Assembly: GCF_021021415.1 (NCBI RefSeq)
Contig: NZ_JAINWJ010000047.1
Coordinates: 1-64,000, forward strand
Direction of reading: 5' to 3'
From: Martelella mediterranea
GTDB lineage: Bacteria > Pseudomonadota > Alphaproteobacteria > Rhizobiales > Rhizobiaceae
Length of the DNA: 64,000 bases
Position 1 is the first letter of the stretch; every line of letters begins with the position of its first letter. The notes below the pieces were generated by a model. The model was not told where the DNA came from. It made no database searches and worked only from the letters and a program-made list of their open reading frames with translations. Shown here piece after piece: positions 38,207 through 59,842 of the stretch. The position numbers were made by a program, and so were the translations under genes.

Positions 38207-38342
38207 AACTTTGGCTCGATCATCTGAAGAAAGGCCGTGAAGTCTAGCGCAAGAAGGACCGGTTCAAGCAGGTGGTGTCCGGCACCGTCGAGATACCAGC
38301 GCAGATCGTCGGGAAACGACGCGGCCAGGCGATTCAGCGGCG

Positions 38343-38478: not shown

Positions 38479-38531
38479 ATCGGCTGTCTGAATCGTCGAA
38501 ATTTGCGCCTAACCTAAAACGCAGGCAAGGG

Positions 38532-39114: not shown

Positions 39115-40608
39115 ATGAATAAAAGTAATGATGATAAAGTTCATGGCGCGGTTGGCCGCGGCGCCGATGTCTCTGCCCCGAACTGGACTCCAGTCACCAC
39201 GGTCACGGAGATGGGGACACCTTTCTCACCAAGTTGCGCCCGCTTTAACGGCACCGACTGGGCCGTCTGGCGGGCAAGCTCAGACGGTTATGTCTGGTAT
39301 AACACTGACAACGGTAGCGGCTGGGGTATGGAAATCGGGTATGACGTCTCGACCAACGCGTCACCTGCGATCACGGTATATGACGGCAAGCTTTACCTAT
39401 TTTGGAGCGCCATAGGAGGGGGACGTATCAATTATGCAACTCATGATGGATTCGGGTGGACGACTGGTCCAGGATATCATCTCTCGGGAACCGATACGTA
39501 CTATGGCCCGGCAGCCGCAAGCTGGAACGGCAAGCTTTATGTGGCGTGGAATTCATACACAGATAACACGCTAAGCTATTCCTGGTTCGATGGGAAAAAC
39601 TGGTATAAGCCGCGGAAGACCAGTTATTCGCTTCGGGACAGGCCGGCTCTGGGCGTATTCGACAATACGCTTTATGGCGCCATTGCCACTCTCTCCGCCC
39701 CGGGACTTGTTCCGTTGCGATATGCCAATAGTGAATGGGTCAATGCGGGTTCGGTGCCCGGCGCGCAGAATTATTACGGGCCCGCACTGGCAAGCGACGG
39801 CCAAAAACTGTTGCTGATGTGGGCGGACTATCCTAGTGGGAACTTGATGACATCGACTCTTGCCGATGCCGATAGCCCGACTTGGACGCCGGCGGCAGGA
39901 ACCGCATCGGGGATGAAGACAAGGAACGACTCACCGGCCCTCTGTGGGGATTCAACAGGTTTTCGGGCTGTGTGGACGCCATACGGCCACAGTAACCTTG
40001 TTACGAGTACTCTTGCTTCCAGCCAGCCCACGCCGCCACCGCCGCCGCCAACCACTGATCGCCCGGTCCCGCCGGAAATTGATAACGCGGATCAAAATAA
40101 TGTATCGGGCGTTACCGGGTACAACTATTACGTGACCATAATTGTCACCTCCAGTGAGGGTGATCAGCTCACGAATGTTCAAACACAGGCCAAGTCCAAC
40201 GGCAGTTGGGCCTACACGCTCGATTACACCTTGACCCAGGGCATGACGGTTCAGGCTGTTACGTCCAAGGATAAGGACAGCACTGCATCCGATGCCTATG
40301 TCAAGGTGATCGGCCAGTTTCAAACCGGCCCGTTGAGGATCACCAGTGTCGAAACGGATCAGGTTTCGGGGGTGGCGCCGGACACCGGGCAGGTCATCAA
40401 GGCCTGGAGATTAAGCGATGGGGCGCTGATGGTCCTTTACCCGGTGCCAGCGGCATCACCGACGTCCGATGGGAAAACATTTACCGCCCCCTATGTCAGA
40501 GACATGAAATTGGCCGCCGGCGACCTGCTTTGTGTGGTCTCGCAATTCCCGAAGGACGGAACCATGACCCCGTTCAACAGGCAATATGAGGGCTATCCAG
40601 GGTCTTGA
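39115..40608 (+). CDS. Leaderless beta-propeller plus Ig-like protein (family member A)
   Basis: A 497-residue protein with no signal peptide (MNKSNDDKVHGAVGRG). Residues ~20-310 contain six to seven ~45-residue units with Trp- and Gly-rich strands (GKLYLFWSA, GKLYVAWNS, NTLYGAIAT, KLLLMWADY, FRAVWTPYG), resembling lectin or sialidase-type beta-propellers. A proline linker (PTPPPPPPTTDRPVPPEI) leads to one Ig-like domain (~aa 325-405) and the terminal module shared with neighbours (VIKAWRLSDG ... FNRQYEGYPGS). The ribosome site is GAAGGA. It opens the island; its partner genes B-G have Ig-like domains in place of the propeller. Sugar binding is plausible for the propeller; no catalytic residues can be claimed. 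Confidence 0.8.
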   Translation: MNKSNDDKVHGAVGRGADVSAPNWTPVTTVTEMGTPFSPSCARFNGTDWAVWRASSDGYVWYNTDNGSGWGMEIGYDVSTNASPAITVYDGKLYLFWSAIGGGRINYATHDGFGWTTGPGYHLSGTDTYYGPAAASWNGKLYVAWNSYTDNTLSYSWFDGKNWYKPRKTSYSLRDRPALGVFDNTLYGAIATLSAPGLVPLRYANSEWVNAGSVPGAQNYYGPALASDGQKLLLMWADYPSGNLMTSTLADADSPTWTPAAGTASGMKTRNDSPALCGDSTGFRAVWTPYGHSNLVTSTLASSQPTPPPPPPTTDRPVPPEIDNADQNNVSGVTGYNYYVTIIVTSSEGDQLTNVQTQAKSNGSWAYTLDYTLTQGMTVQAVTSKDKDSTASDAYVKVIGQFQTGPLRITSVETDQVSGVAPDTGQVIKAWRLSDGALMVLYPVPAASPTSDGKTFTAPYVRDMKLAAGDLLCVVSQFPKDGTMTPFNRQYEGYPGS

Positions 40609-40625
40609 GCCGGCATTTCGCTTTT

Positions 40626-40655
40626 CCTGCCTGCGCCGCAGCGGGTGCAGGCAGG
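40626..40655 (+). other. GC-rich hairpin after gene A
   Basis: CCTGCCTGC (40626-40634) pairs with GCAGGCAGG (40647-40655), 17 bases after the stop. No T run follows. An identical stem lies at 38818-38847 in the duplicated fragment. Confidence 0.5.
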
Positions 40656-40817
40656 ATGGCAGCAATCGAGTCTTCGCACACGACAAGACGTGAGATGGTC
40701 CGCGAGCGTTGTCGAGCGGCACATTGTCGACGATGTCGCGGTGACGTGTTCCGCTAAAATGGGACAGATATTCCTGTCTTCGTCTGAATACTGCTCAAAC
40801 GTCTCATCATACAAACA

Positions 40818-40848
40818 CAAAACCCGTCGAGAAAATCGACGGGTTTTG
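40818..40848. terminator. Strong bidirectional terminator between gene A and the second autotransporter
   Basis: CAAAACCCGTCGA (40818-40830) and its exact complement TCGACGGGTTTTG (40836-40848) flank a five-base loop; the A/T-rich outer stem supplies a U run in either direction. It should stop the autotransporter transcript arriving on the minus strand and any read-through from gene A. Confidence 0.85.
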
Positions 40849-40899
40849 CGACTATCTGGGCCGGAGCCTATGCCTCGCCTTTCCTGGTTGATATCAGGC

Positions 40900-43800
40900 C
40901 TACCACTTCACGCGGAAGCCGAGATTGCCGCCGTAGGAGTAGGAGCCGCCGCTGAGGCCGGTGGCGGCGGTGACTTCGCCGTAGACGCCGTAGTTGACGT
41001 TGTTGGTGTCGGTCCAGTCATAGGTTCCGCCGAACCCGATCTCGCCGGTCCAGGGGTCAAGTTCGGACGATGCCGTGAAGGACTGCTCGATCACCGCTTT
41101 CGTCTCGCCCATGAACTCATGGTAGATATTGGCGATGCCGTAGACATTGCCGCGACGGGCGAGGCCATTCGCATCCGTCGATATGAACTCCTTTTCCACC
41201 GCCAGGCCGAGGCGCGCCTTCAGGCTGTCGCCATTGTCGAAGGTCGCATCGTCGTTATAGGCGCCGGTGAAGCTGTCGATGTCGACCGACGACCAGGCGA
41301 GCTGGCCCTGCGGCGTCAGGATCAGATCTTTGCTGTCCAGCAGGAACTGCTGACCGGCTTCCACCGACACCGCGTAACCGAAGGCGTCGGAATTCTCGAC
41401 CCCCTTGTAGAGGTCGTCCGCCTTGAGCTCGCTTGTGTACCAGGTCGCCTGGACCTGGCCGTCGGTGTAGAAGCCATTGTCGCCATACCATGTCAGCGTG
41501 CCGCCGAAGCCGTAGCCATCCGGATGGACCTTGCTGTCGCCATGGACGGAGTCGAACTTGGCCTCACCCGTGCGGTAATGCACCGTCAGCCCGCCGACCA
41601 GAGCGCCCGGCCCGTCATCATAGAACAGCCCGTCCACGCCGGCCTGCATCTCGAAGGTGGAGAGATCGTACTTGTAGCCGGTCGTGGAACTTGTGGGATC
41701 GAGGTGCGAGAAGTCGCCGCTGATGCGTCCCCAGACGTTTTCCAGAGCCGGCGCGGACTGCTGGAGCGGGATCGTGAAGGTGGTCTCGCTTTCGTTCTGA
41801 TCCAAGTTGGGCGTGCCGTCGCCGTCAACGGAGACGCTCGCCTGCGAATAGTAGCCGGGGTCCTTGGGCGTCAGCACCGGCGCCGGCGGCGGAACAATCA
41901 CTTCTCTGCCGAGCCAGGCCCGTTTGCCGACGCGCTGGCGCATGGTCGGCAGTGTGTTCATGTCCAGCAGCGCCGACTGATAGCCTTCGTAAAGCGGCAC
42001 GAAGGGCTGGAGCCGGGGATTCGGTCCCGGTGGTGTCGGCCCCGGAGGCGTCGGTCCCGGAGCGCCGGTCGCCGAAAGGTAGACGCCGGGCGGATAGCCG
42101 TTGCCGGGGTCGCCCTCGAGGCTGTAGACCAGCCCATAGGCATAGATGCCCGATGCCGTCATCTGCTTCTTGTCGAGCGTGAACTCGTTCTTGTCGATAC
42201 CGGTCCCCGTGGTCGTGTCGACGATCAGGATCGCGCCGGGACTGGCGTTCGCACCGATATCGGCGATCTCGAGCTGCGTGACGCCGCCGAGATCCTTCCC
42301 GACGGTCAGCACGTCCGCCTTCAGATCGCCGAAGTCGACGTCCAGGCCAAGCCTGCCGCCATCGCTGGTGTAATCGCCCTCGACGATGAAATTGCCGCCA
42401 TAGGCGCCATCCTGCATCGTCAACAGGCCCTTGTTCGAGAGGTTGCCGTTGAGGGTGAAGCTCTGCCCGGTGCGGGTGCCGCCCATCACACTCGAACCGG
42501 CAAGCATGTAGAGGTCGCCCTTGCCGTTGGCGTTGCCGCCGTCATAGCCGTCGAGCGTCATGCCGTCATCGATGAACTTGATCGCGACATTCTCGTTGAC
42601 GGTGAATTTCTCCCAATTGTTGATGTTGCGACCGGCAACGCTGTCGTTATTGGCGGCGAAGGTGACCTGGTCGACATCGGTTTTGATCTGACTTTCCGGA
42701 GCGCCGCCATCCTCGCCGCCATCCAGAATGGCCGCGGCGAAATTGGCGGAACCCGGCACATAGATCGTGGCCGTATCATTGCCGCCCTGGCCGTAGAACC
42801 CGCTGTTGAGCGTGCCGCCGGACCAGATGAAGTTGTCGGCGCCCTGGTTGGCGGCCGGCGCTTCCGCCGGATCGAAATCGCCGTAAATGTCGCCCGTCCA
42901 GGAACCGCCCGCCAGCGTGAAGGTGGAGTTGCCGCCGCCCATATTTGCCGAGCCGGTGACGTTGCCCCAGGTGGTGAGGTTCATATTGGTGCCGGCCTGA
43001 TCGTCGGCATTGTAGAAGGCATGCTGGCCGGCGGCAGCGGAAGCATCGATGACCAGACCGCCGCCGAAGGTGATCGTGGCCTGGGTCGCCGCCTGACCGG
43101 CGCTCCAGCGCTCGGCAAAGCCGACCGCCGCCTTGGCGTTGCCCGTCGCGGTGATCTTCACGGCATCAAGTGAAACCTTGGTCTCGCCCCCCTGGCTGTA
43201 GGCGCTGACGCCGAAGGCATCGGAACCGGAGACGTTGATCGTGTTGGCGAAAGCATTGTTGCTCGTCGTCACGCTCGCAGTGCCAGACCCAAGCGCTTCG
43301 GCATAAAGGCCATAGGAATTGTCGCCGGACACGGTAAGATGGCCGCTCTGATAGGTGATCTCGGCGTTGCCGGCATTTGCCGCGTCCTGATTGGTCACGT
43401 AAATGCCGTGCGAATTGTCGCCGCTGGTTTGCAAGGTCGCAACATCGCCTTTGAAGGTTGCGGAGCCGCCCTGTGAAGCCACAAGGTAAACACCGTGCGC
43501 GCCCTGGCCCGAAGTGGTGATATTGCTCCCGTTCACCTCTTCACCGGAGAAGGTTGCTGTTACATCGCCTTTGCCATCGTTTTGCGCGTAGATGGCGTGA
43601 GAAGCATCACCGGTGGTGGTGACGTCCGCACTCGCCGTGACTGTGATATCCGACGTATTGCTCGCATTGTCGAGCAGGGCGGCTGCGCCGTAGGAGCCAG
43701 CGCCGCTTGTTTTGAACGTGCCGGCGTTAACCGACAGGTCAATGGAGCCAGAGCCATTGGAATAGGCATAGCCGCCATGAGCGCCGTCTCCCGAGGTCGA

Positions 43801-45504
43801 AAGCTCCTGTCCGCTCGCCGCCCCGTTATTCTGAAGCAGCATGCTGATATTGCCTGCGCCGCCAGTCGTGGCGTAAACGCCATGTGCGCCGTCGCCAAGG
43901 GTTGTCAAGGTACCCTGGTAGTATTTGGCGGTCACGTCGCTATCAACTGCCGTTGCCGCCATGCCGATGGAACCGGCGCCTTCGGTTGCGATCGTACCGC
44001 CCTGGAACCCGGCGAAGGCAGTTGCCCCGGATAGGGCGGCTTCTGCGTAAATGCCATATGCGTTTGCACCATAGGTATTAATGGTTAGCGGTATATTCTC
44101 CTTGCTGACAAAAGCATAAGCTTGACTCCCCACGGCATTGGTGGTGGCGTAGACGGCGTGAGAACCTGTTCCCTTGGTCGGATCTCCTGAATCTCCAGTC
44201 GTCACCGATCCGCCGTGAAGGTAGATGTTTGCCTTGTTGGCATTGTCGGCAGCCCTGATCTGAGCATAGAGGCCGTAGGCGTTGTCGCCTTTTGTTGTTA
44301 CCGTTCCCGCGCTCATATCGATATGTGCCTGGTCAGATCCTCCCATTTTCGCCATAACAGCGTGGCTTCCGTCTCCTTCGGTTGTTACGGTGCCACCGTC
44401 GATGTCGGCATAGGCCTGCCCTGCGGAGTTACCATAGGCGAAAACGCCCGCGGCTGACGCCCCTGTAGTCGTAACCGTTCCACCTTGCAGGTTTACGGTC
44501 GATGTGCTGGTCACGGTGTTGTCGACAGGAAATATGATCGACTGAAGTGCGTTGGCGTAGTCGCCTGAAGTTGTAACGTTCCCGGATTGCATCGTGACAG
44601 AGGCATTCCCGCTGCCGTCATTCATGGCAACTACGGCCGATCCGGTGCCATCACTTCCGTCAGCACCAGTGGCAGAGGCGTCCCCGGTGGTCGAGATTGA
44701 CATGTCGGACACGGTGACCGTGGCATCGTGTGATCCGCCGGAAATGGCAAAGACCGCGGCGGAGTTATCCGCATTCATTGTAATCGAGCCGCCCGATGCT
44801 GTGATGGCGGCGGCATCGTGAAACGAATTCGCCCAAAGGCCGGTTTGTTGCGAAACGCCGATGCCGGCATTGCCGGTGATCGTGCCACCCGTCATCTTGA
44901 TTGTTGAGGAGCCGCTGCCCTCGTTGAACAGGAATGCGCCAAATGACATATCGCCGTTGATGTCGATTGTCCCTCCCGACATGTCGAATTCGTAATCTGC
45001 TGTGGGAGCGCCGTCCTGGGAGCCAATGAAAACGCCGCCGGTCAAAGCGCCATTTGCCTTGAGCGTCCCACTGTCCAGACTGGCGCTGACTTTGCCCTCA
45101 TAGGCCTGGCCCGTAAGATCAACGGCGATCGCGGCGTGGTATTTGTTGTCAATAAGCAAAGTGCTGGGCTTGGACGTTATCGTCCCTGTCCCCGTATCGA
45201 CCTTCACATCGATCGCACCGCTTCCCGAATTGCTAGGCGTGATGTTTACGCCGTCCGTCACGCTGGTGTTGTCGGTAACGGAAAGCTCCAGATTGGTGAC
45301 GCCTGTATAAGTAATGCCCGACGCATAAGGTCCGCTATTGCAACTCACCGTCGGGCCTGTCCCGCACTCATTGTCAGCATAGGCCGCACCGGCGGGAAGG
45401 CCGGCCGCAAGCGCGGCAGCGATGATCGCCCGGGCGGAAACGGACGATGCCATCGAAACGTGCCTTCGTCCAAGGAGGATTAGGTTTCTATTATAGGTCA
45501 ACAT
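40900..45504 (-). CDS. Autotransporter with short glycine/Tyr-rich repeats, 1534 aa
   Basis: Second type Va autotransporter. Start at 45504 (MLTYNRNLILL) behind AGGAGAAACGG; the signal region is long (to about aa 43, AYA-DNE). The passenger is a predicted beta-helix of some 20 units with motifs such as TTGDASHAIYAQ, TSGDNSHGIYVT and VSGDNSYGLYAEA. A Pro-rich linker (PGPTPPGPTPPGPNP) joins it to the linker-barrel part, which contains VWGRISGDFSH-type pertactin sequence and ends GNLGFRVKW with a terminal aromatic. It is unrelated in repeat type to the first autotransporter. It points against the surrounding plus-strand family and has its own AT-rich promoter region and terminator. An adhesin role is inferred. 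Confidence 0.93.
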   Translation of the reverse strand: MLTYNRNLILLGRRHVSMASSVSARAIIAAALAAGLPAGAAYADNECGTGPTVSCNSGPYASGITYTGVTNLELSVTDNTSVTDGVNITPSNSGSGAIDVKVDTGTGTITSKPSTLLIDNKYHAAIAVDLTGQAYEGKVSASLDSGTLKANGALTGGVFIGSQDGAPTADYEFDMSGGTIDINGDMSFGAFLFNEGSGSSTIKMTGGTITGNAGIGVSQQTGLWANSFHDAAAITASGGSITMNADNSAAVFAISGGSHDATVTVSDMSISTTGDASATGADGSDGTGSAVVAMNDGSGNASVTMQSGNVTTSGDYANALQSIIFPVDNTVTSTSTVNLQGGTVTTTGASAAGVFAYGNSAGQAYADIDGGTVTTEGDGSHAVMAKMGGSDQAHIDMSAGTVTTKGDNAYGLYAQIRAADNANKANIYLHGGSVTTGDSGDPTKGTGSHAVYATTNAVGSQAYAFVSKENIPLTINTYGANAYGIYAEAALSGATAFAGFQGGTIATEGAGSIGMAATAVDSDVTAKYYQGTLTTLGDGAHGVYATTGGAGNISMLLQNNGAASGQELSTSGDGAHGGYAYSNGSGSIDLSVNAGTFKTSGAGSYGAAALLDNASNTSDITVTASADVTTTGDASHAIYAQNDGKGDVTATFSGEEVNGSNITTSGQGAHGVYLVASQGGSATFKGDVATLQTSGDNSHGIYVTNQDAANAGNAEITYQSGHLTVSGDNSYGLYAEALGSGTASVTTSNNAFANTINVSGSDAFGVSAYSQGGETKVSLDAVKITATGNAKAAVGFAERWSAGQAATQATITFGGGLVIDASAAAGQHAFYNADDQAGTNMNLTTWGNVTGSANMGGGNSTFTLAGGSWTGDIYGDFDPAEAPAANQGADNFIWSGGTLNSGFYGQGGNDTATIYVPGSANFAAAILDGGEDGGAPESQIKTDVDQVTFAANNDSVAGRNINNWEKFTVNENVAIKFIDDGMTLDGYDGGNANGKGDLYMLAGSSVMGGTRTGQSFTLNGNLSNKGLLTMQDGAYGGNFIVEGDYTSDGGRLGLDVDFGDLKADVLTVGKDLGGVTQLEIADIGANASPGAILIVDTTTGTGIDKNEFTLDKKQMTASGIYAYGLVYSLEGDPGNGYPPGVYLSATGAPGPTPPGPTPPGPNPRLQPFVPLYEGYQSALLDMNTLPTMRQRVGKRAWLGREVIVPPPAPVLTPKDPGYYSQASVSVDGDGTPNLDQNESETTFTIPLQQSAPALENVWGRISGDFSHLDPTSSTTGYKYDLSTFEMQAGVDGLFYDDGPGALVGGLTVHYRTGEAKFDSVHGDSKVHPDGYGFGGTLTWYGDNGFYTDGQVQATWYTSELKADDLYKGVENSDAFGYAVSVEAGQQFLLDSKDLILTPQGQLAWSSVDIDSFTGAYNDDATFDNGDSLKARLGLAVEKEFISTDANGLARRGNVYGIANIYHEFMGETKAVIEQSFTASSELDPWTGEIGFGGTYDWTDTNNVNYGVYGEVTAATGLSGGSYSYGGNLGFRVKW

Positions 45505-46354
45505 TCCGTTTCTCCTGAATGTTTATCGGATTTATATTTCAACAATCTCCTTTTTTGGTTAACAAGCATTTAACTATACTTTATATTTAGTTATTATACT
45601 TAAGAAATTTAGATATTAATAATTTAGAATGTTAATATAATTCTTGTTTTTACTAATAAATATTGCTTCGTGGTGGACTTTAAACGTCAGTTTCCGGCGG
45701 CTTGTCCAGCGCGTGTCGCAAAGCTTGGATGACTGAAAGCTTTGGCTTGGCGATTGCCGGGGCTTGAAGGGCGCTCGATCCAGAGCCCCTCTCCAAAGAA
45801 GCAGGGCCCTCCTGCGGGAATCGCGGGCTGTGAGTTTTCGAAGGTGGATCACAAAAAACACAGCCTATAGCGCAACAGCGTCGCCCTTGGCGGAGCGGGG
45901 AACGTCAGGAGGTGTCTGCCTGTGTCAGTGGGTGGCGCCATTTAAGAATGTCGTTTCATTTTTGACCGCCATGGCTTCTGGCGTCTCGCAGCCGGCGGAA
46001 AAGCGAGTCCGGGGACGGTTGCGCTCCCTGCAGGCCGCGGCTGGCCAGTCTGCACGTCGGTCGTCCGAAAAAAACTATGGCATGCAATTTCAGAATTTAT
46101 CCAGGATTTCCCGGAATCTCTGCGCCGTCCCCATAATATACTGTTTGATATGCGTATTATTTTATTTCGTATGACAATATTTCCCGGAATTTCTGCTGAT
46201 ATTTCTACACTTTATAGGCTGAAAAACTGACAAGTATACCAAAGGTTGCAATGTAATATAGACAACCATAGGTTTATATCGCTATTCTGTAGATGCGCCG
46301 GCCCCCATGCCGCCGTTGAAAGTTTTCAGACATTTTAATTTACGGAGATCCAAC
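45505..46354. other. AT-rich intergenic region between autotransporter 2 and gene B
   Basis: 45505-45660 is very rich in A and T and should hold the promoter of the minus-strand autotransporter. 45660-46080 is GC-richer with short frames on both strands (for example 45764-46174 plus) that match nothing I know. 46090-46340 is again AT-rich and includes the upstream box TGTAATATAGACA (46252-46264) and the leader of gene B. Confidence 0.5.
46252..46272 (+). promoter_or_regulatory. Upstream box of the leaderless family, gene B
   Basis: TGTAATATAGACAACCATAGG: its first 13 bases equal the box of gene A, and its second half (ACAACC-TAGG) equals the box of gene D. Distance from the box core to the start codon is about 90 bases. 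Confidence 0.5.
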
Positions 46355-50553: not shown

Positions 50554-51068
50554 GCGCATCAATTCAAAAAAAGCCTCTGATGCATAAAGCCCGGCGCCGA
50601 TGCGAAAGCTTCTGCGCCGGGAATGTTCCGGCTGAAATGCCGGATCAGCTCTCAGTTGTTTCGACCTTGGCAATCTCCCATTCACGCAGAGCCGGAGCAA
50701 GAAGGACCGTGCTGGAATGTTTTTTTGTGGGAGTCGAGCGCAACCTTTAATTGTAATTCATCTCTTCTGTGCTCACGTCCAGCAAGAAATCAGACTATTT
50801 CGATCAGGGCACATCTGCGACCCGCGCCAGGACAATATATTGCTATTTATAAACCTTTAACTAATGCCATGACCTGCAGTTCATGAGGCGAAGTAGCGTT
50901 AATCTGATATTTCCGAGTTGATCACAAACGGCCTTACTTCTAAAAATTAAATCTTAGGTTGTATTTTTATCTAGACAACCTAGGATAGCATGGGCTAATC
51001 TTGAACTGGCGCCGGAGAGAGCCGCCGCCGGTAGAATTTCAGAGCACACTATTTTACGGAGAAGCACC
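50554..51068. other. Spacer between C and D with hairpins and upstream box
   Basis: Two stem-loops follow gene C: CCCGGCGC/GCGCCGGG (50590-50621) and TCCGGC/GCCGGA (50627-50644). 50740-50990 is AT-rich. TCTAGACAACCTAGG (50970-50984) is the clearest form of the family's upstream box, about 85 bases before gene D. No gene is supported. Confidence 0.55.
50970..50984 (+). promoter_or_regulatory. Upstream box of the leaderless family, gene D
   Basis: TCTAGACAACCTAGG; shares ACAACC-TAGG with gene B's box and TCTA-ACAAC-TA with gene E's (53683-53695). The spacing to the start codon is about 85 bases in each. Confidence 0.5.
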
Positions 51069-53483
51069 ATGTCTATCGAGACAGGGAGCCCGACGGCTCC
51101 CGCATCCGCCGCCTCGCGGCCGCTGCCGCCGGCATTGAAGTTCAACGCAGCGACGCACACTTTCACCGGCACGGCTGAGCCCGGCAAGACGGTCCGTCTG
51201 ACCGGCAGCGACGATCAGCGCATGCTCACCGCGACCGCTGATGCCAATGGCAGTTGGACGCTCGAACTCCGCAAGCCTCCACGCCTCTACACCACGTTCG
51301 AGATCTGGGTCTGCGACGGGCCGGAGGGAGAAAGCTCCGACAAGGTCAAATTCACCTATGGAGGCGATAATCCGAAGCTTTCCGATATTTATGCCAGCAA
51401 AACCCTGGCCTTCGGTCGTAGCACCCCCGGTACCAAGGTTAGCGCCTTCGGACCGGAAGGTCAGCTCCTCGGCCGTGCGCTGGCGTTGGGCGAACATGGC
51501 GCCTGGGTCATCCGCTTTGGCAATGCCGTCGAAGCAGGCGACAAGATCTGTGTTCTCGCGGAAGCCTTAAGCGGCAATACTTCCATGCCTTGCTTTGTCG
51601 AAGCGAAAGAATTTTCGCTTAACGACCACAATGTCGGTCACATCGCCGGCACAGGCGCCGAGCCGGGCGATCAAGTCGAGCTCTATGACATTGCGGCGGG
51701 GCAAGTCATCGCCTCGACCATTGCCGCTGAGGATGGCCGCTTCGAATTCTCTTTCTGCGACCCGATCGAAGCTGGTTTGCGCATCTCCGTTGAGCGTATT
51801 CACAGGAATGGGGAGACGTCGACAGGGCCGGTATTCACTGCACTGCGCAATCAATGCCTGTCTCCGGCCATCGCGTCATTTTCCGGCACGACGATCACGG
51901 GCAGGGCCGATCCCGGACTGAAGGTGACCTACACGCAGCTTCGCGACGGAAACATGGTCCACAGCGACACTGTGACCGTGCCCGAAAACGGTCTCTGGTC
52001 GAGCGACGCCGCAACCGAGCCCTACGCCTTCGATTTCCAGAAAGGTGACATCATTTTCGCAACGACGCAGAGCGCCGACGGAACGAAAGAATCGGTGTTT
52101 TCCTCCAATGTCAAGGTCGACGGTACAAGGCCCGGCACGCCGCTGGTCGAGAAAATTGACTCAGATGGCGCCAACGGCTGGGCAGAGCCATTCAAGTTCA
52201 TCCTCGCCTCGACGGCAGAAGACGGCGTCGTGGCCCTGGCGCAGGCAGGCCGCGATGGCTATTGGCAACTCGGCTGGAAGGATTTCGTCGGTTCTCTTCC
52301 AACCACCACGGTTGTGTTCTTTGCGGCGTATGACACACTGCTGGAAAACCAGAAGTTACCCACTTCGATGATCACCGCGAGTTTTGCAGATCTCGCGGGG
52401 ATAAAGCCCGCCAAACCTGTCATCGTTAAATATATGACAACCGATATCGAAGGCACCCAAACGCCGGTCCCCGGCTATGACCTCGTTGTCATTGTTCACA
52501 ACAACACAACAAGGCAGGATATCAATCCGGGCGGCGCACTCGTCGCTGACGGAATCTGGCAGGTCATACCTAAATCCCCACTGATCCCCGGTGATAATGA
52601 TGAAATCATCGCGACCACATGGCTTACCAAGAACAATATACTGTTAACCGCTTCGGACGAGTCCGTCCCCAAAAATGTCAGCTCATTTGTACCGCCTACG
52701 CCTTCGGTCACGAAAAGCTATCCGGACGATATCGAGGGCCTTGAACTAATATCCAAGCCCGCAAACCTGACAATGACCACGATCTACATTGCTCCTGAAC
52801 TGGATATCAGCCACACACCGGTCGCCAATAGTGGTCATCTCACCGGTCAGACATGGACCATTTCCCCAGCGCCGCCCCGGACCGCCGGCGAAGAGATGGT
52901 TGCCTGGGCCGTGACCGATGCCGGCGCCATATCTGGTTACCGCCCTTTCAAGATTAATGCAGCCGAAAAACCGCTCCCACCGAGTATCGGCAACTGGTCA
53001 AGCGAGATCATCACAGGGAGTGGCGTGCCTGGTCAAACCGTGAAGCTTACTGTCAACGATGGCTTTGCAGGCAGCGCCGTTGTTGATGCGGAGAGCCGAA
53101 GCTGGAAAATCGACATTGGAAACAAGCCGCCAGCTGACACCAAGTTGAGCGCCACTGCCACTGACCCAAAGACTGGCGCCGAGTCCGATCCATTTTACAT
53201 CGTCGTCGACCAACCGCGCGCAACGCTTAAAATTGATAATTCTTCAGTAACAACCAGCGGGTTCAGCGGCACGACCACTAACCTGCCGCAGATCATCCTG
53301 GGTTGGCGCGTATCAGATGGCCTGAAAGTCGTTGACTACCCTACGAATACGGCTTCGTTCAATGCCACATATATAGCCGATTCGAACATCAAGAGCGGCG
53401 ATTTCATCAGGTTCGTTTCGCAAAATGATACCGGCGATCCGGAAGCCTGCTTCTCCACTTATGAAGGGAACCAGGTCAGTTGA
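51069..53483 (+). CDS. Leaderless tandem Ig-like protein (family member D)
   Basis: An 804-residue protein, ATG at 51069 behind TTACGGAGAAGCACC. No signal peptide or membrane segment. About eight Ig-like or related sandwich modules can be followed: ~18-100 (LPPALKFNAATHTFTGTAEPGKT), ~100-190 (FGRSTPGTKVSAFGPEG ... AGDKICVLAEALSGNTSMP), ~190-270 (GTGAEPGDQVELYD), ~270-350 (GRADPGLKVTYTQLRDGN), ~350-440 (PFKFILASTAEDGVVALAQ), ~440-545 (VIVHNNTTRQDINPGG), ~545-640 (YPDDIEGLE ... NSGHLTGQTW), ~640-730 (GSGVPGQTVKLTV), then the terminal WRVSDGLKVV module. It is colinear with G throughout and shares its ~440-640 part with F. Function unknown. Confidence 0.82.
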   Translation: MSIETGSPTAPASAASRPLPPALKFNAATHTFTGTAEPGKTVRLTGSDDQRMLTATADANGSWTLELRKPPRLYTTFEIWVCDGPEGESSDKVKFTYGGDNPKLSDIYASKTLAFGRSTPGTKVSAFGPEGQLLGRALALGEHGAWVIRFGNAVEAGDKICVLAEALSGNTSMPCFVEAKEFSLNDHNVGHIAGTGAEPGDQVELYDIAAGQVIASTIAAEDGRFEFSFCDPIEAGLRISVERIHRNGETSTGPVFTALRNQCLSPAIASFSGTTITGRADPGLKVTYTQLRDGNMVHSDTVTVPENGLWSSDAATEPYAFDFQKGDIIFATTQSADGTKESVFSSNVKVDGTRPGTPLVEKIDSDGANGWAEPFKFILASTAEDGVVALAQAGRDGYWQLGWKDFVGSLPTTTVVFFAAYDTLLENQKLPTSMITASFADLAGIKPAKPVIVKYMTTDIEGTQTPVPGYDLVVIVHNNTTRQDINPGGALVADGIWQVIPKSPLIPGDNDEIIATTWLTKNNILLTASDESVPKNVSSFVPPTPSVTKSYPDDIEGLELISKPANLTMTTIYIAPELDISHTPVANSGHLTGQTWTISPAPPRTAGEEMVAWAVTDAGAISGYRPFKINAAEKPLPPSIGNWSSEIITGSGVPGQTVKLTVNDGFAGSAVVDAESRSWKIDIGNKPPADTKLSATATDPKTGAESDPFYIVVDQPRATLKIDNSSVTTSGFSGTTTNLPQIILGWRVSDGLKVVDYPTNTASFNATYIADSNIKSGDFIRFVSQNDTGDPEACFSTYEGNQVS

Positions 53484-53784
53484 CGAGAAAACATCGCTTG
53501 CGATGAGAACAGGACAACCGGCGTTTCGCCGCCGGTCGTCCGCCTCAGCTGAAGCGCTCTGCCACCACACTGGCGATTGCGCTGCGGTGAGATGGCGTGC
53601 CTACCAGAGTGTGTGGGTGGGTGTGACCGTTCAGCATGAAAAATAACACGACGCGAACGCGCCTACGACCAGATCGCGTCGATCTATACAACTTATACAT
53701 GCATAATTGGTTTTCTTCGCCTCATTCGGTTTTTTATCCAGCCAAGCGAAGCAACCAGTCCAAACAAGTGTCACGGAGAGGATC
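53484..53784. other. Spacer between D and E
   Basis: A stem-loop (53512-53541: GGACAACCGGCG pairing with CGCCGGTCGTCC, one mismatch) follows gene D. TCTATACAACTTA (53683-53695) resembles the family's upstream box and lies ~90 bases before the gene E start. Nothing else is seen. Confidence 0.5.
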
Positions 53785-55929
53785 ATGGCTCATAAGACTG
53801 TCGGCAGCCTTTCGCTGCTGCCCCCGGAAATCAACTTTGACGCGGCAAGCGGAATTTTTAGCGGAACCGCCGCGCCCGGAGTATCTGTTCGTCTGACCAG
53901 CAGCGTCGACCAGCAAATGCTCTCGACGATGAGCGGGCAAGATGGTGGTTGGAAAATCGCGCTCGGAAATACGCCGCGGCTTTATACCATTTTCGAAATC
54001 TGGGCTTGTGACCAGCACACTGGAATCTCGTCGATCAAGGTAAAATACATTTATGGCGGGAGCCAGCCTAGGCCTACCAATGTTTATGCCAGCAAAACCG
54101 TCGCCTTCGGCGAAGTCACCGGCGGCGCTGAAATCAGCGTTTACGGACCTGACGGCGCACTTCTCGGGCGCGATCTGGTCATTGCCGGACAGAGTACATG
54201 GGCTGTGAATTTCCGCACGCCGCTCAATGCCGGTGACACGATCTGCGTCATCGCGAGCGGACCTGCTGGTGCAACATCCCTGCCGGTCTTTGCAAAAGCC
54301 AAGACCTTCTCGGTAGACGACCGCAATGTCGCGCATATTGCCGGTTCCGGAGCCAAGCCGGGTGAAAAGGTTGAGCTGTTCAATCGCTCGAACGGAGAGT
54401 TACTGGCCAGCACGGATGCGACCGACCTCGGCACCTGGTCGGTGTCTTTCTGTAAACTGCTTAAGCGCGGCACACCGATTACCATCCGACGCGTCGACAA
54501 ATCAGGCGTAACCTCACATGGCCCGTCTTTCTCCGCTTCACTCAAGCGTAGCCTGATGCCATTCATCAAGTACCTTGGAGAGGCTGAATTGGCAGGACTT
54601 GCCGTGGCCGGGCTCTCTGTCCAATGCTCACTGCGTCGCAACGGAGGCATTATGGAGAGCCACACAGTCCAAGCGGATGAGAGTGGCAGATGGCGAACCG
54701 AATTCACCGACACACCGGTCAAAACGGGAGATCTTCTCATCGCAAAATCCATGGCGACGGATGAGACGGCGGATTCGCTTTTTTGTTCGATAATTCAAGT
54801 CGGTCAGGAGCGGTTCGCTCCGCCCGAAGTGACGTCTATCGACCAGAGTGAAGCTTCGGGCACAGCGGAACCTTTGAAATATGTCATCGCGTCAACTGCG
54901 GAGCATGGTTATATTGGCAAGGCGCAGGTTGACTCCGATGGCACCTGGAACCTCAAATGGGGCGCTACCTACGGTCAGCTGCCGAAAACAACCGTTGTCT
55001 ATTTCGTATCGGTTGAAAACATCTACACCGATCCCTTCTCGCCGACCTCAGATTATGCCGGCCGCTATGCTGATGCTGATGGGTCAAAGCCGCCGAAGCC
55101 CGTCATTACGGGGCAGGACTCGGACGGAGCGTTTTACGGAACCGAAGAAGACGCGAATTCAACGATCATCGTCTATAAGCAATCAGACGGCATGGCGGTG
55201 AATGATACGCCGGTTCCGGTTAACTCCGACAATTCCTGGATCGTGGCTCCTGACGATCCGCCGAGCGTGGGCGACAAGGTCTATGCGCAAGCCACGGAAA
55301 TCGGCTCGGACGCACCTGGCGCAACTTCGGATAAATCGGAGCCCTATACCGTGAAGAAGACACCGGCCGCGGGCGTGCCCTGTCCGCCGGAAATCCTGAA
55401 TGTGGCCACGCCGAAAATTTTCGGGCAGGCGCAGCTTAACACCTGGGTTGTCGTGACCGTGGAACTGCCAAATAAGCAGCCTAAGTCATTTGATCCGGTA
55501 GCTACACAAGGCACAAGCTGGAATATTGATTTGACAAGTGAGTATGGGGACTCCTTTCCGACAACGACAAGGGTTTTCGCAACGGCGCAATATAAACAGG
55601 ATTCAACCGATACGTCAGGGACATACATTAAGGAGGTGGGCGTCAGCACTCTTGGAGGCGTAATCATCAACACGGTGACGGAAACCGAAGTTACCGGAAT
55701 ATCTCCGGTGCCAGAGATGGTTGTCCAGGCCTGGCGCGGAAGTGACGGAAAGCAAATCGTCACCAATTATACAATCCCGGGCTCCGACCCCGCCTTCACC
55801 GCTAAATTTGAAGATGGCGAGAAACTCAAGGACGGCGATTTGCTCTGGCTTGTCTGCGGATATACCGACGAAGGAAGCATGACGCCCTTCAACCGCCAAC
55901 AGGAAGGTTATGTCAACCCGGATATGTAA
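53785..55929 (+). CDS. Leaderless tandem Ig-like protein (family member E)
   Basis: A 714-residue protein, ATG at 53785 (MAHKTVGSLSLLPPEINF) behind CACGGAGAGG. The long frame extends to 53707 and would add a pseudo-hydrophobic stretch, but the conserved ribosome site and the match with paralogues favour 53785. The first five modules are colinear with D and G (FSGTAAPGVSVRLTS, FGEVTGGAEISVYGPDG, GSGAKPGEKVELFNRSNG, and PLKYVIASTAEHGYIGKAQ). The later modules resemble B rather than D/G (FYGTEEDANSTIIVYKQSDG, PCPPEILNVATPKIFGQAQ), and it ends with the terminal module QAWRGSDGKQIV ... FNRQQEGYVNPDM. The pattern suggests recombination between family members. Confidence 0.8.
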   Translation: MAHKTVGSLSLLPPEINFDAASGIFSGTAAPGVSVRLTSSVDQQMLSTMSGQDGGWKIALGNTPRLYTIFEIWACDQHTGISSIKVKYIYGGSQPRPTNVYASKTVAFGEVTGGAEISVYGPDGALLGRDLVIAGQSTWAVNFRTPLNAGDTICVIASGPAGATSLPVFAKAKTFSVDDRNVAHIAGSGAKPGEKVELFNRSNGELLASTDATDLGTWSVSFCKLLKRGTPITIRRVDKSGVTSHGPSFSASLKRSLMPFIKYLGEAELAGLAVAGLSVQCSLRRNGGIMESHTVQADESGRWRTEFTDTPVKTGDLLIAKSMATDETADSLFCSIIQVGQERFAPPEVTSIDQSEASGTAEPLKYVIASTAEHGYIGKAQVDSDGTWNLKWGATYGQLPKTTVVYFVSVENIYTDPFSPTSDYAGRYADADGSKPPKPVITGQDSDGAFYGTEEDANSTIIVYKQSDGMAVNDTPVPVNSDNSWIVAPDDPPSVGDKVYAQATEIGSDAPGATSDKSEPYTVKKTPAAGVPCPPEILNVATPKIFGQAQLNTWVVVTVELPNKQPKSFDPVATQGTSWNIDLTSEYGDSFPTTTRVFATAQYKQDSTDTSGTYIKEVGVSTLGGVIINTVTETEVTGISPVPEMVVQAWRGSDGKQIVTNYTIPGSDPAFTAKFEDGEKLKDGDLLWLVCGYTDEGSMTPFNRQQEGYVNPDM

Positions 55930-55943
55930 CCGGTTGCCGGCGT

Positions 55944-55967
55944 CGGCGCCAGCGATGATTGGCGCCG
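55944..55967 (+). other. GC-rich hairpin after gene E
   Basis: CGGCGCCA (55944-55951) pairs with TGGCGCCG (55960-55967), 15 bases after the stop; no T run. Confidence 0.5.
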
Positions 55968-56066
55968 GTCTGCCGCTTTAGGATGTACTGCCTTTTCGTA
56001 GCGGTGCGAGCTGCAATACCGGAGGGGCGAAAGGCACAGAAAATCCAAACTTGGTGGAGAAGCAGC

Positions 56067-56693
56067 ATGTCTGAACAAGCGACCGGCAATGCGTCAACGT
56101 CGAAGCCCGACGCACCTGCCATCACAACATACAGGACGAGTGTTATTGGCGGCACGGAAGCGACACCAGGCACGGTTGTGGTCGTTCACAACGTGACCCA
56201 AGGCCGAGATGTCAACCCGGGGGGCGCAAGCGTCTTTTTTGGAAGCTGGCAGATCCAACCAACAGGCGCCGATACTCCGAAGGATGGCGATGAAATCACC
56301 GCAGTTGCATGGATGGTTGAAAACGGCAATTTGACGGTCTCCTCTGACCCGTCCCAGCCCAAGACGGTCAGCGCATTTGTACCGCCCAGCCCTGAGATCA
56401 TGACGAGCTATCCAGATGATGTCGAGGGCACTGAATTCATACTTCAACCCTCACTCCAGGCAATGACCACCGTGTATATCGCTCCTCAACTGGATATCAG
56501 CCGCACCCCGGTTGGCAATAGTGGTCATCTCACCGGCCAGTCATGGGCCATTACCCCATCACCGAGCAGGTCCCCTGGCGAAACGATGGTGGCCTGGGCC
56601 CAGACCGATGCCGGCGCGAAATCGGCTGAGAGACCTTTTACGATCGTTGAGCCCGACGAGCCGATCGCGCCGAAAAGCGAAGCAACCGAGTAA
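56067..56693 (+). CDS. Short family member F (two internal modules only)
   Basis: A 208-residue protein, ATG at 56067 (MSEQATGNAST) behind GGTGGAGAAGC. It lacks the family N-terminal module and the terminal WRxSDG module and consists of two units: YRTSVIGGTEATPGTVVVVH ... VNPGGASVFFGSWQI and YPDDVEGTEFIL ... NSGHLTGQSWAITPSPSRSP. These correspond to residues ~440-640 of D and the equivalent part of G, with which identity is high. The good ribosome site and clean ends suggest it is expressed as an independent short protein; alternatively it is a residue of a deletion in a longer paralogue. The upstream leader lacks the clear ACAACC box. Confidence 0.7.
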   Translation: MSEQATGNASTSKPDAPAITTYRTSVIGGTEATPGTVVVVHNVTQGRDVNPGGASVFFGSWQIQPTGADTPKDGDEITAVAWMVENGNLTVSSDPSQPKTVSAFVPPSPEIMTSYPDDVEGTEFILQPSLQAMTTVYIAPQLDISRTPVGNSGHLTGQSWAITPSPSRSPGETMVAWAQTDAGAKSAERPFTIVEPDEPIAPKSEATE

Positions 56694-56837
56694 AGACGAA
56701 GCCCCGAGATCGTCCTGCCGACAGGCGGAATTGCACCAATGGATGCACGTAATAGTAGCATTTGCTGGGGAGCAAGGCTCTTTAGTTGAGAAATGACGCA
56801 GAGCACACAGATCATAACAACGTTACGGAGAAGCACC

Positions 56838-59258
56838 ATGTCTCAGGATTTCAAAGGCAGCACGTCTCTGCTGCCGCCGGCAATGAAATTCACCGCAGCC
56901 ACCGGAGTTTTTTCCGGCACGGCAGAACCTGGCAAGACGGTTCTTCTGACCAGCAACGCTGATCAGCGCGTGCTCTCCGCAACGGCGGATGATATCAATG
57001 GCCGTTGGGCGATTGCGCTCGACGACGCACCGCGTCTTTATACTCAATTTGATATCCGGGCCTGCGACCCCGAAACGAAGGCCTGTTCGGCTACGGTCAA
57101 GTTCATTTATGGCGGAGACAACCCTGAGCTTGCCAATATCTATGTCAGCAAAACCCTGGCTTTCGGTCACAGCAGGCCCGGCACGAAAGTTATCGTCTTT
57201 GGACCCACAGGCCGGGTTCTCGGCCAGTCCTTTGTCTTCGGCAAGCACGGTGTGTGGACTGTCAGGTTTGGCGATGCCGTAGAAGCAGGCGACACAGTCT
57301 GCGTCATGGCGGAATCCCTCATTGGCAACACTTCGATGCCGTTTTTCACAAAAGCCGAAGCGTTTTCGGTCGAAGACCGGAATGTCGACCGCGTTGCCGG
57401 CTGCGGCGCCAGGCCGAACGACAACATCCAGTTATTCGATGTCGGATCAGGGCAGGAGCTTGCCAGCACTGTGGCGAGTGACGCGGGGGCATGGTCACTC
57501 TCGTTTCAGGACCCGCTGGAAGTTGGCACGCGCGTCGTCATCCAACGCACCCATATTGACGGCGACACGTCCAAAGGCCCGATTTTCACTGCCATCAGGA
57601 ACGACTGCCTTGCTCCGATCATCGAGACGTTTTCGGGCAACCAACTGGGCGGCATGGCGCAGCCAGGATTACAGGTCGACTACGCGCAATACCGCGACGG
57701 GATGACCGTTCATAAGGGCTCGGTAGCAGTGCCACAAAACGGTCTGTGGACCAGCAATGATGCAGCTGATTACCAGCCCTTTGAGTTCCAGTTCGGTGAT
57801 ATTCTGGTGGCGATGACGACGAATGGCAACGACACGGCGGAATCGCTGATCCCCTCAAGCGTGACGATTGGCAGCACGCGGCCCAGTGCCCCTCTGGTGC
57901 TATATATCGATCAGAACGGGGCCTGGGGCTACGCCGGCTCTCTGAAAAACATAATCATTTCGACCGAAGATGCCGGCCTGATCTGGGCCGCGCGGAGCAA
58001 CCGGATTGGCTATTGGTCCGCCGACTGGACGCTTTCAGTCGGAGCTCTTCCGACGACGACGCGGGTGTTTTTCGAAGTGCTTGATTCATGGCAACTGACC
58101 AATGACATCCAGACATCGACGGCCACCGTACGCTATGCCGATGCGTCGGGGGGCAAACCCGCTGCACCGGTTATCGATACCTACATCCCTTCAAAGATCG
58201 CGGGCACGGAATCCACAGCTGGCACCGTCGTATTCGTCCATAACGCAGATGAGGATGATCAGGCTATCAATTCGGGCGGCACGGCGGTCACCAACGGCGC
58301 CTGGCAGGTCAACCCGACCGGCAGTTATGCTCCCCATGATGGTGACGAGATTTTCGCCGTTGCCTGGACCCTTATTGAAGGTGGCCAGCTAGGCGTTAAT
58401 TCAGACCGCTCGACGCCTGTCGACGTCGATAGCTATGTGCCTCCGAAACCGAACGTCAGTTTCGGACATCCCACCGACATTGAGGGCGATGAGCCAGTGC
58501 TCACGGCCGACCTTAGCGAGTTGCCGAATATCGTCATCCATGTGGGTTATGCATCGGTCATGCCCCGGAAGTCGATTGCCAATAGCGGCCATCTTACCAG
58601 CGGCAGGGACTGGTCGATCACGCCTGTGCCCGCGCTCATCGTAGGCGATCAGATGGTTGCCTGGGCCGAAACCGATGCCGGCGAGCTATCCGGTGAAACA
58701 CCGTTCACGATCACGGCAGCAGTGACCGCCAAGCCGGCGCCGCCAATGATTACCAAATGGGATACGGCCGTTATCTCCGGGACCGGCCCGGGCGGAACGT
58801 TGGTGTCATTGAGCAAGAATGGGCAAGACATGGGTTCAACCGCCGTCGGCTCAGCACAGTATGGTTATAGTTGGCAAATCAATATCGGCAAGCCTGCGTC
58901 GACGGGCGATGTGTTGAAAGCCGTGGCAACAGATCAAGGCGGCTACAATTCCGATCCATTCTATATCTATGTTGGTGATGTGCCAACGATGCTTACCGTC
59001 GAAGCTGTCACCACAAGCGAACTGACCGCCAATGTGAGCACCGCCAATCAACGATTGCTTGCATGGCGTAGTGCCGACGGGTTGAAGGTCATCGACCATC
59101 TGATCGGGGGGCCTGGCACCTACACCGTACCCTATCTATCCAACGTAACCGTCGAAACCGGCGATCTCATCATGTGCTCTTCGATGGATACGACCTATTC
59201 CAGCACAGAAGGAACAATGGTGCACTATGATTCAAACTATGTTCCTTATTCAGCCTGA
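56838..59258 (+). CDS. Leaderless tandem Ig-like protein (family member G)
   Basis: An 806-residue protein, ATG at 56838 behind GTTACGGAGAAGCACC, the same leader as D. Colinear with D over its whole length: LLPPAMKFTAATGVFSGTAE, FGHSRPGTKVIVFGPTG, AGDTVCVMAESLIGNTSMP, GCGARPNDNIQLFDVGSG, GGMAQPGLQVDYAQYRDG, VFVHNADEDDQAINSGG, NSGHLTSGRDWSITP, GTGPGGTLVSLSKNG, and the terminal LAWRSADGLKVIDH. The extreme end differs from the FNRQxEGY form (SSTEGTMVHYDSNYVPYSA). No signal peptide. D and G are the closest pair in the array, separated by E and F. Confidence 0.82.
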   Translation: MSQDFKGSTSLLPPAMKFTAATGVFSGTAEPGKTVLLTSNADQRVLSATADDINGRWAIALDDAPRLYTQFDIRACDPETKACSATVKFIYGGDNPELANIYVSKTLAFGHSRPGTKVIVFGPTGRVLGQSFVFGKHGVWTVRFGDAVEAGDTVCVMAESLIGNTSMPFFTKAEAFSVEDRNVDRVAGCGARPNDNIQLFDVGSGQELASTVASDAGAWSLSFQDPLEVGTRVVIQRTHIDGDTSKGPIFTAIRNDCLAPIIETFSGNQLGGMAQPGLQVDYAQYRDGMTVHKGSVAVPQNGLWTSNDAADYQPFEFQFGDILVAMTTNGNDTAESLIPSSVTIGSTRPSAPLVLYIDQNGAWGYAGSLKNIIISTEDAGLIWAARSNRIGYWSADWTLSVGALPTTTRVFFEVLDSWQLTNDIQTSTATVRYADASGGKPAAPVIDTYIPSKIAGTESTAGTVVFVHNADEDDQAINSGGTAVTNGAWQVNPTGSYAPHDGDEIFAVAWTLIEGGQLGVNSDRSTPVDVDSYVPPKPNVSFGHPTDIEGDEPVLTADLSELPNIVIHVGYASVMPRKSIANSGHLTSGRDWSITPVPALIVGDQMVAWAETDAGELSGETPFTITAAVTAKPAPPMITKWDTAVISGTGPGGTLVSLSKNGQDMGSTAVGSAQYGYSWQINIGKPASTGDVLKAVATDQGGYNSDPFYIYVGDVPTMLTVEAVTTSELTANVSTANQRLLAWRSADGLKVIDHLIGGPGTYTVPYLSNVTVETGDLIMCSSMDTTYSSTEGTMVHYDSNYVPYSA

Positions 59259-59796: not shown

Positions 59797-59842
59797 GCCT
59801 TGAGCTTGAGGTCGTTTGCAAAAACGACCTCAAGCTCAAGGC
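59797..59842. repeat. Perfect 21-bp inverted repeat
   Basis: The 21 bases from 59797 to 59817 (starting GCCTTGAGCTTGAGG) are exactly complementary to 59822-59842, around a GCAA loop. It begins four bases after the stop of the minus-strand SDR gene. No T run follows on either strand. Confidence 0.85.

What the first reader, a model, noticed from the sequence alone, without database searches (positions are those of the whole stretch)
39115..59258. Array of seven leaderless Ig-like (and one beta-propeller) paralogues: candidate undescribed surface or effector system
Genes A-G (39115, 46355, 48946, 51069, 53785, 56067, 56838) encode large proteins of tandem sandwich modules with a shared N-terminal module (B, C, D, E, G) and mostly a shared C-terminal module. 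None has a visible signal peptide, lipobox or membrane segment, although the domain types are those of secreted adhesins. They sit in one ~21-kb island without an adjacent type I, II or VI secretion operon. I know of no named system with this composition.
Basis: partly seen in the sequence, partly recalled or inferred. Interest (0 to 1): 0.78.

Follow-up and report, generated by a model that had tools for sequence, protein, structure and literature searches.

The report
Leaderless Ig-rod and lectin cassette
A bacterium of the genus Martelella carries a tandem set of fast-changing rod-like proteins, with a probable sugar-binding protein and an autotransporter, that look built to work outside the cell but lack any export tag, so how they leave the cell is an open and testable question.

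Summary
Seven genes (A-G) encode leaderless modular proteins; the starts of B-G are fixed by a ribosome-binding site shared with a second species. B-G are rods of 2-8 Ig-like modules. A is a predicted propeller of six-bladed fucolectin/sialidase fold plus an Ig module closest to Bap. A, B, D, E, G end in a C-terminal module (CTD) seen only in Martelella: 5 of 13 genomes, and in samples of 385 and 398 genomes only in the window's own. A second species keeps the order Ig protein, autotransporter, B, C, D, E at another site. A 24-bp dyad ends 88-92 nt before B and D in both species and, at up to one mismatch, occurs nowhere else in either genome. Ig orthologues are 32-46% identical; other ORFs compared are 77-94%. 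Best reading: a co-regulated, fast-diverging cassette of extracellular adhesive or glycan-binding proteins. Exit route unproven; likeliest an LssB-type type I exporter encoded elsewhere, with precedents in Rhizobium and Photorhabdus. New variant of a known kind.

The parts
39115..40608 (+). Gene A, 497 aa: leaderless propeller (aa ~21-304), Pro-rich linker, one Bap-like Ig module (aa 315-400), C-terminal module (CTD)
   Evidence: ORF; models; fold matches
40900..45504 (-). Autotransporter, 1534 aa, with hydrophobic N-terminal segment and AT barrel; conserved member of the cassette
   Evidence: PF03797 3.7e-30, TIGR01414 9.1e-63; 67% identical protein at the same relative place in G006
46355..48571 (+). 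Gene B, 738 aa: 7 Ig-like modules + CTD
48946..50553 (+). Gene C, 535 aa: 6 Ig-like modules, no CTD
51069..53483 (+). Gene D, 804 aa: 8 Ig-like modules + CTD
53785..55929 (+). Gene E, 714 aa: 7 Ig-like modules + CTD
56067..56693 (+). Gene F, 208 aa: two modules, 52% identical to aa 436-639 of D; a short duplicate without shared N-terminus or CTD
   Evidence: (52% to D); DNA match 52668-52954 to 56358-56644 at 77%
56838..59258 (+). Gene G, 806 aa: 8 Ig-like modules + CTD; close paralogue of D
   Evidence: D and G grouped 98/97 in the tree
46244..46267 (+). 24-bp dyad GGTTGC-N12-ACAACC, ending 88 nt before the start codon of B (possible operator)
50957..50980 (+). 24-bp dyad GGTTGT-N12-ACAACC, ending 89 nt before the start codon of D (possible operator)
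38528..38852 (+). Duplicate of the tail of gene A and its 3' flank (96.6% to 40336-40660); headless second copy at the island's left border

Best explanation
The island is a co-regulated, lineage-specific cassette of extracellular adhesive proteins. B-G are rods of tandem Bap-type Ig-like modules; A carries a lectin-fold propeller on an Ig stalk; the autotransporter displays a further large passenger on the outer membrane. A dyad before B and before D makes B-C and D-E-F-G two units under the same control (inferred). The leaderless proteins leave the cell unfolded through a type I exporter encoded elsewhere (most likely the LssB/LapB-like one beside a VWA-Big adhesin on another contig), then sit in the matrix or on the surface, where the propeller binds glycans and the rods bridge cells, matrix or host. 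The CTD, the one part shared by the lectins and most rods, is the best candidate for the export or anchoring determinant. Shown by computation: architecture, leaderless starts, conserved cassette, dyad found only there, divergence, presence of the exporter gene. Inferred: extracellular location, the exporter used, glycan binding, adhesion, regulation.
For: Ig module of A closest to Bap-C (Z 12.6, rmsd 1.6, 80 aligned), then Bap-BSP (10.7) and SiiE (10.4). Propeller model pLDDT 80, pTM 0.82; top rows are fucose lectins AofleA, SapL1, AFL, AAL (Z 27.6-28.1, 260-263 aligned). Leaderless starts conserved in two species. Cassette order conserved with the autotransporter (67%) in G006; a 56-aa remnant of an autotransporter C-terminus lies beside the two Ig genes of G005. 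One relative in G005 (663 aa) has a signal-like N-terminal segment (KD 2.04, then SNAQ), which would put at least that relative outside the cytoplasm. Identity between G000 and G006: 32, 41, 46, 44% for B, C, D, E and 41% for an orphan lectin, against 76.5-94.4% for the five other matched ORFs beside that orphan, a pattern common for surface proteins. Dyad: at up to one mismatch 2 of 2 sites in G000 and 2 of 2 in G006 lie before B and D. LssB-type exporter over cut-off in 7 of 13 Martelella genomes, among them all 3 with Ig arrays; in G000 next to an HlyD protein and a VWA+Big_12 adhesin fragment. In Rhizobium leguminosarum, supernatant bands of two leaderless cadherin-like proteins (61 and 95 kDa in theory) are missing in a prsD mutant (PMC2275737, passages).
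Against: No RTX motif (0 GGxGxD in A-G), which many type I substrates carry. C and F lack the CTD, so it cannot be the only export signal. The exporter association is weak: 3 of 3 arrays among 7 of 13 genomes has p = 0.12, and G008 and G012, which have orphan lectins, have no LssB-type match over cut-off. G000 and G006 have no PrtD-type exporter over cut-off. Leaderless PLL lectins are found outside the cell although no signal is recognised, so no type I exporter need be involved. The propeller fits sialidases (Z up to 27.2, a tie) as well as lectins, and no binding or catalytic residue was tested. Below the Bap rows, fibronectin III and other Ig-type domains follow from Z 9.5. Divergence could reflect separate acquisition, and the comparison ORFs come from one locus only. 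The right flank is nearly as AT-rich (GC 0.59) as the island, so low GC is poor evidence of import.
Confidence: 0.45

Rival explanations
1. Same extracellular adhesive role, but released without a dedicated exporter (lysis, vesicles or an unknown path), as may hold for leaderless propeller lectins of Photorhabdus.
For: Foldseek's first 18 rows for the propeller are PLL/PHL lectins; PLLs have no recognised signal peptide, yet PLL2 and PLL3 were found in the extracellular proteome (PMC12203525, passage). Lectin genes also stand alone in G000, G006, G008 and G012, with no protein exporter that I recognised among the neighbouring ORFs (read by eye).
Against: VIA's highest rows are six-bladed lectins, while PLLs are seven-bladed. 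A type I exporter for Ig-type adhesins is present in all 3 genomes with arrays.
Confidence: 0.25
2. The cassette's autotransporter is the partner: the leaderless proteins are exported or held at the surface with its help, with the CTD as the recognition element.
For: The autotransporter keeps its place between Ig genes in G006 and a C-terminal remnant lies beside the G005 Ig genes.
Against: A related autotransporter (46%) occurs in G009 without Ig genes nearby, lone CTD lectins occur without it, and classical autotransporters move their own passenger (established knowledge). The 56-aa G005 remnant could come from any of several paralogous barrels.
Confidence: 0.1
3. The leaderless proteins act inside the cell, for example as intracellular lectins or scaffolds.
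For: No signal-like N-terminus in A-G, in the G006 371-aa protein or in the two other CTD proteins of G000 by the hydropathy measure, nor by eye in the G006 rods and other lectins (the true starts of some lectins are uncertain).
Against: Bap/SiiE-type Ig modules and fucolectin-type propeller; a relative with a signal-like N-terminus in G005; rapid divergence.
Confidence: 0.12
4. The proteins are injected effectors or antagonists.
Against: T6SS marker TIGR03358 in 0 of 13 Martelella genomes (found in the E. coli control). No toxin or catalytic domain in A-G by Pfam, NCBIfam or PHROGs. Immunity genes and other injection systems were not looked for.
Confidence: 0.04

Closest known systems
Bap/SiiE-type Ig-rod adhesins (Big_6, Ca_tandemer)
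   Same: Tandem Ig-like modules of the same fold; no N-terminal signal peptide, as in type I-exported adhesins
   Different: Much shorter (208-806 aa), several per locus, no RTX, genus-specific CTD, no exporter seen beside them
PrsDE-exported Rap and cadherin-like proteins of Rhizobium leguminosarum
   Same: Leaderless 60-95 kDa adhesive-type proteins exported by a type I system (PMC2275737, passages); same bacterial family (recalled)
   Different: PrsDE is a PrtD-type exporter (recalled); G000 and G006 have none over cut-off. Sequence relation not tested
AAL/RSL (LecF) six-bladed fucose lectins
   Same: Fold of A's propeller (Z 25.9-28.1); Ralstonia LecF acts in attachment and biofilm mechanics (PMC11449490, passages)
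   Different: 11-15% identity, no Pfam lectin family found; A has an added Ig module and CTD; sugar binding untested
PLL/PHL lectins of Photorhabdus
   Same: Leaderless propeller lectins found outside the cell; top Foldseek matches
   Different: Seven blades; VIA's highest rows for A are six-bladed; 14-17% identity; no Ig or CTD modules (recalled)

Membership tests
Bap-type (Big_6) Ig adhesins | Tandem Big_6/Bap-fold modules | tested here: met
   Big_6 over cut-off in B, C, D, E, G; Ig module of A matches Bap-C Z 12.6
Bap-type (Big_6) Ig adhesins | Very large size with C-terminal RTX/type I signal | tested here: not met
   208-806 aa; 0 GGxGxD
Type I secretion substrates | No N-terminal signal peptide | tested here: met
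Type I secretion substrates | Exporter present in the genome | tested here: met
   TIGR03375 793.6 bits over cut-off 693.1 at G000:C46:1852-3924, HlyD beside it
Type I secretion substrates | Export depends on that exporter | not testable with these tools
   needs a mutant
AAL/RSL-type fucose lectins | Six-bladed propeller fold | tested here: met
   Z 25.9-28.1 to AofleA, SapL1, AFL, AAL, RSL over 241-263 residues
AAL/RSL-type fucose lectins | Sequence profile of the family | tested here: not met
   no lectin family listed at E<=10 for 7 of 7 lectin-type proteins, though HMMER's filters drop most matches above 0.1; no PDB sequence match
AAL/RSL-type fucose lectins | Fucose-binding residues and binding | not tested
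   -
GH33 sialidases | Six-bladed propeller fold | tested here: met
   Neu2 Z 27.2
GH33 sialidases | Catalytic residues | not tested
   -
PLL/PHL seven-bladed lectins | Seven-bladed fold | tested here: inconclusive
   best Foldseek E-values (4.8e-11) but loose superposition, rmsd 4.6-9.4
Type Va autotransporter (40900-45504) | C-terminal AT barrel and N-terminal signal | tested here: met
   PF03797, TIGR01414; hydrophobic N-terminus KD 1.57

The most novel reading that the evidence does not exclude
A genus-specific export and display system: the Martelella C-terminal module is a new recognition element that takes leaderless Ig rods and lectins across both membranes (through the cassette's autotransporter or a type I exporter recruited in trans), switched on as a set by an operator used only here.
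Probability: 0.12. Interest if true: 0.72.

Novelty: new variant of a known kind. Interest (0 to 1): 0.44.

Why it matters
It gives a compact case of adhesin-like proteins with no visible export tag that are conserved as a set, share a regulatory dyad and diverge fast within one genus. Reporter fusions and one exporter deletion would tell whether an unlinked type I system exports non-RTX Ig rods and lectins, and whether the C-terminal module is the signal. The same question is open for the leaderless propeller lectins of Photorhabdus.

Tried and rejected
Upstream starts with hidden signal peptides: rejected. Phage origin: no PHROGs hit at E<=0.1; three scans of viral contigs found no relative. 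Plasmid-borne relatives: 5 records match A and 6 match D at 23-30% identity; by the tool's count one record covers at least 80% of D in one place; they look like other propeller or Ig-repeat proteins. T6SS: none by one marker. PrtD-type exporter as the route in G000 and G006: none over cut-off (which covered 11 of the 13 Martelella genomes). Model of A with paralogue rows gave a poor propeller (block pLDDT 26-43); replaced by a two-row alignment. No PLL/PHL chain is among the 50 rows that VIA printed. At E<=10 single lectin-type proteins had weak Pfam hits to GH43 (0.086) and DUF6242 (1.1), each in 1 of 7. The CTD was not folded alone, so whether its fold is known is untested; profile comparison with the Ig half gave 36% probability, E 3.7e-4 for a single comparison, and BLAST of A's CTD against D's first module gave nothing. 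Dyad as RNA hairpin: z -7.2 and -3.5 for D6 and D but -1.0 and -0.8 for B and B6; pair counts exceed the slid controls but not the shuffles. I prefer a DNA operator, without proof. Blade period by self-comparison: peaks near 45-47 and multiples; the best offset beat all 100 shuffles in 3 of 7 proteins, tied in 1, and not in A; the fold, not this, carries the claim. The genome-contig scan with D found nothing and the one with A3 a single locus, so such scans may miss this family. The broad profile searches score at most 8-9 candidates per genome and the two samples overlap, so absence elsewhere is as sampled. No description was found in the listings.
Full report
OBSERVATION. Pfam's Big_6 is over its cut-off in B, C, D, E and G. 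A profile built from the family and iterated over it counts 1+CTD modules in A after the propeller, 7+CTD in B, 6 in C, 8+CTD in D, 7+CTD in E, 2 in F, 8+CTD in G (E-values there are optimistic because the profile was trained on these proteins, and the CTD of G scored only iE 0.1). For the seven genes NCBIfam gives mainly Ca_tandemer and Blp2 Ig hits, all below cut-off except Ca_tandemer in D (56 bits against 50), and PHROGs gives nothing.

LEADERLESS STARTS. In B-G a GGAGA begins 10-11 nt before the ATG, 6 of 6, with TTACGGAGAAGCACC-ATG in D and G; the four rods of a second species (G006) have CGGAGA at the same place and equally short N-termini. A has a weaker AAGGA. By hydropathy no segment in the first 50 residues of A-G resembles a signal peptide, whereas the autotransporter has one. 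No signal-peptide predictor was available.

THE GENUS. One A-type relative in a public collection lies on PVUG01000013.1, titled 'UNVERIFIED_ORG: Martelella mediterranea strain USBA-857'; its contig has the same length (150,937) as G008:C13, a genome of the window's genus. So the genus is most likely Martelella (Rhizobiaceae, recalled).

DISTRIBUTION. With D as query 5 of 61 genomes match, with A 4 of 61, all in the genus. With the profile of the last two modules (A4, 16 rows, 177 positions) 5 of 13 Martelella genomes match (G005 weakly, 50 bits). In 385 genomes of the class, the window's own and 4 others match, the others only in positions 6-106, that is the Ig half. In 398 of the phylum, the own and 20 others match, the others up to position 123 at most; all lie in ORFs of over 1,100 aa except six of seven in G456 and one in G506. 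The CTD as a whole was thus seen only in Martelella. At most 8-9 candidates per genome are scored in those two searches, so this is a sampled absence.

A CONSERVED CASSETTE. In G006 a 371-aa Ig+CTD protein (-), an autotransporter (-, 67.3% over 1540 columns) and rods B6, C6, D6, E6 (+) follow in the order of the window, between ORFs that read differently from the window's flanks. G005 has two Ig genes and, after them, a 56-aa remnant of an autotransporter C-terminus (64%); several paralogous barrels share that end, so the remnant is weak support. G009 has a 46% autotransporter without Ig genes nearby. Single A-type lectins lie apart: one in G000 (C46), two in G006, one in G008, two in G012, and a 208-aa Ig+CTD protein is on G000 C51. 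Tree of the first 280 residues of 9 rods: B with B6 (97/95), D with G (98/97), E with E6 (82/86), C, C6 and D6 unresolved. I infer that the array is older than the species split and that D and G separated later. F is a duplicate of an inner part of D (52%).

DIVERGENCE. G000 against G006: B 31.8%, C 40.8%, D 46.1%, E 43.7%; orphan lectin 40.7%; the five other matched ORFs around that lectin 76.5-94.4% (the 76.5% ORF is probably an antisense reading). Against G008 the orphan lectin is 44.1%, two neighbouring ORFs 70.1 and 78.1%; between G006 and G008 that lectin is 71%. The autotransporter is in between at 67%. GC of A and of B-G is 0.56, against 0.64 on the left and 0.59 on the right flank; in G006 the rods have 0.59, their flanks 0.61-0.62.

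REGULATION. Aligning upstream regions showed a dyad GGTTGY-N12-ACAACC that ends 88, 89, 92 and 92 nt before the start codons of B, D, B6 and D6. In the window 2 matches were found with up to 3 mismatches, 0.03 expected. In whole genomes, with one mismatch allowed, G000 has exactly these 2 sites, G006 exactly its 2, G009 one elsewhere, and G005, G008 and G012 none; the reversed control pattern has none in the 6 genomes. The six-base arms are constant but for one base in B, the outer arms vary; RNA folding is strong in D6 and D only. I read it as an operator that puts B-C and D-G under the same control. No regulator gene was identified.

STRUCTURE. A 1-312 with one relative as second row gave pLDDT 80.3 and pTM 0.82. 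VIA-align ranks six-bladed fucose lectins first (AofleA Z 28.1, rmsd 2.4, 262 aligned; SapL1 27.7; AFL 27.7; AAL 27.6), with sialidases such as Neu2 at 27.2, within the tie range. Foldseek's first 18 rows are Photorhabdus PLL/PHL lectins (E 4.8e-11 to 1.7e-9, rmsd 4.6-9.4). A lectin- or sialidase-type propeller is therefore well supported; ligand and activity are not known. No Pfam lectin family and no PDB sequence matches. The Ig module of A matches Bap-C (Z 12.6, rmsd 1.6, 80 aligned), Bap-BSP and SiiE; fibronectin III and other Ig-type domains follow from Z 9.5. The CTD is predicted as a further beta module, perhaps a diverged Ig module; it was not folded or searched alone.

EXPORT. No RTX motif. 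No T6SS marker in 13 genomes. A PrtD-type exporter over cut-off is absent from G000 and G006. An LssB-type one is over cut-off in 7 of 13 genomes: G000, G001, G002, G005, G006, G009, G011. In G000 it lies on C46 with an HlyD protein, an outer-membrane-factor-like protein (my reading of the sequence) and a VWA+Big_12 adhesin fragment at the contig start. The 3 genomes with Ig arrays are all among the 7, which has p = 0.12. A G005 relative (663 aa) has a signal-like N-terminal segment, which suggests that family members work outside the cytoplasm, at least there. Precedents: R. leguminosarum PrsDE exports leaderless cadherin-like and other proteins (PMC2275737, passages); PLL lectins have no recognised signal peptide but PLL2 and PLL3 were found outside the cell (PMC12203525, passage); Ralstonia LecF, a six-bladed lectin, shapes attachment and biofilm under flow (PMC11449490, passages).

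CONCLUSION. The unit is real, conserved and probably co-regulated; its parts belong to known adhesin and lectin folds; the combination, the genus-specific C-terminal module and the exit route are new. The most likely role is attachment or matrix building outside the cell, with export in trans by the LssB-type system as the leading but unproven route.

Noticed in passing
37840-38151 (-): Truncated ScpB (46 bits, profile positions 91-167 only); full-length matches lie elsewhere in the genome, one over cut-off on C1 and weaker ones on C38 and C98.
   Followed up: partly
38264-38441 (-): Scrap that I read as an IS6-like transposase fragment (from the sequence and recall, no call), beside the duplicated tail of gene A; the left border looks like a rearranged site.
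   Followed up: no
L046:10655-12646 (+): G005 relative with signal-like N-terminus, four Ig modules and an unassigned C-terminal region of about 260 aa that looks VWA-like by eye; Pfam shows only Big_6 and a weak Big_13 in this protein.
   Followed up: partly
59797-59842: 46-nt inverted self-match (91%) just beyond the 3' end of the SDR gene.
   Followed up: no
224-7288 (+): 2354-aa ORF with no NCBIfam match at E<=1e-5.
   Followed up: no
L014, L051, L047: Orphan lectins next to an XRE-cupin-like regulator gene (92 and 78% identical to that of G000) keep their place in G000, G006 and G008 while the G000 lectin is only 41-44% identical to the other two.
   Followed up: partly
L094:3-7228: LssB-type exporter, HlyD, outer-membrane-factor-like gene and VWA+Big_12 adhesin fragment on G000 C46.
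   Followed up: partly
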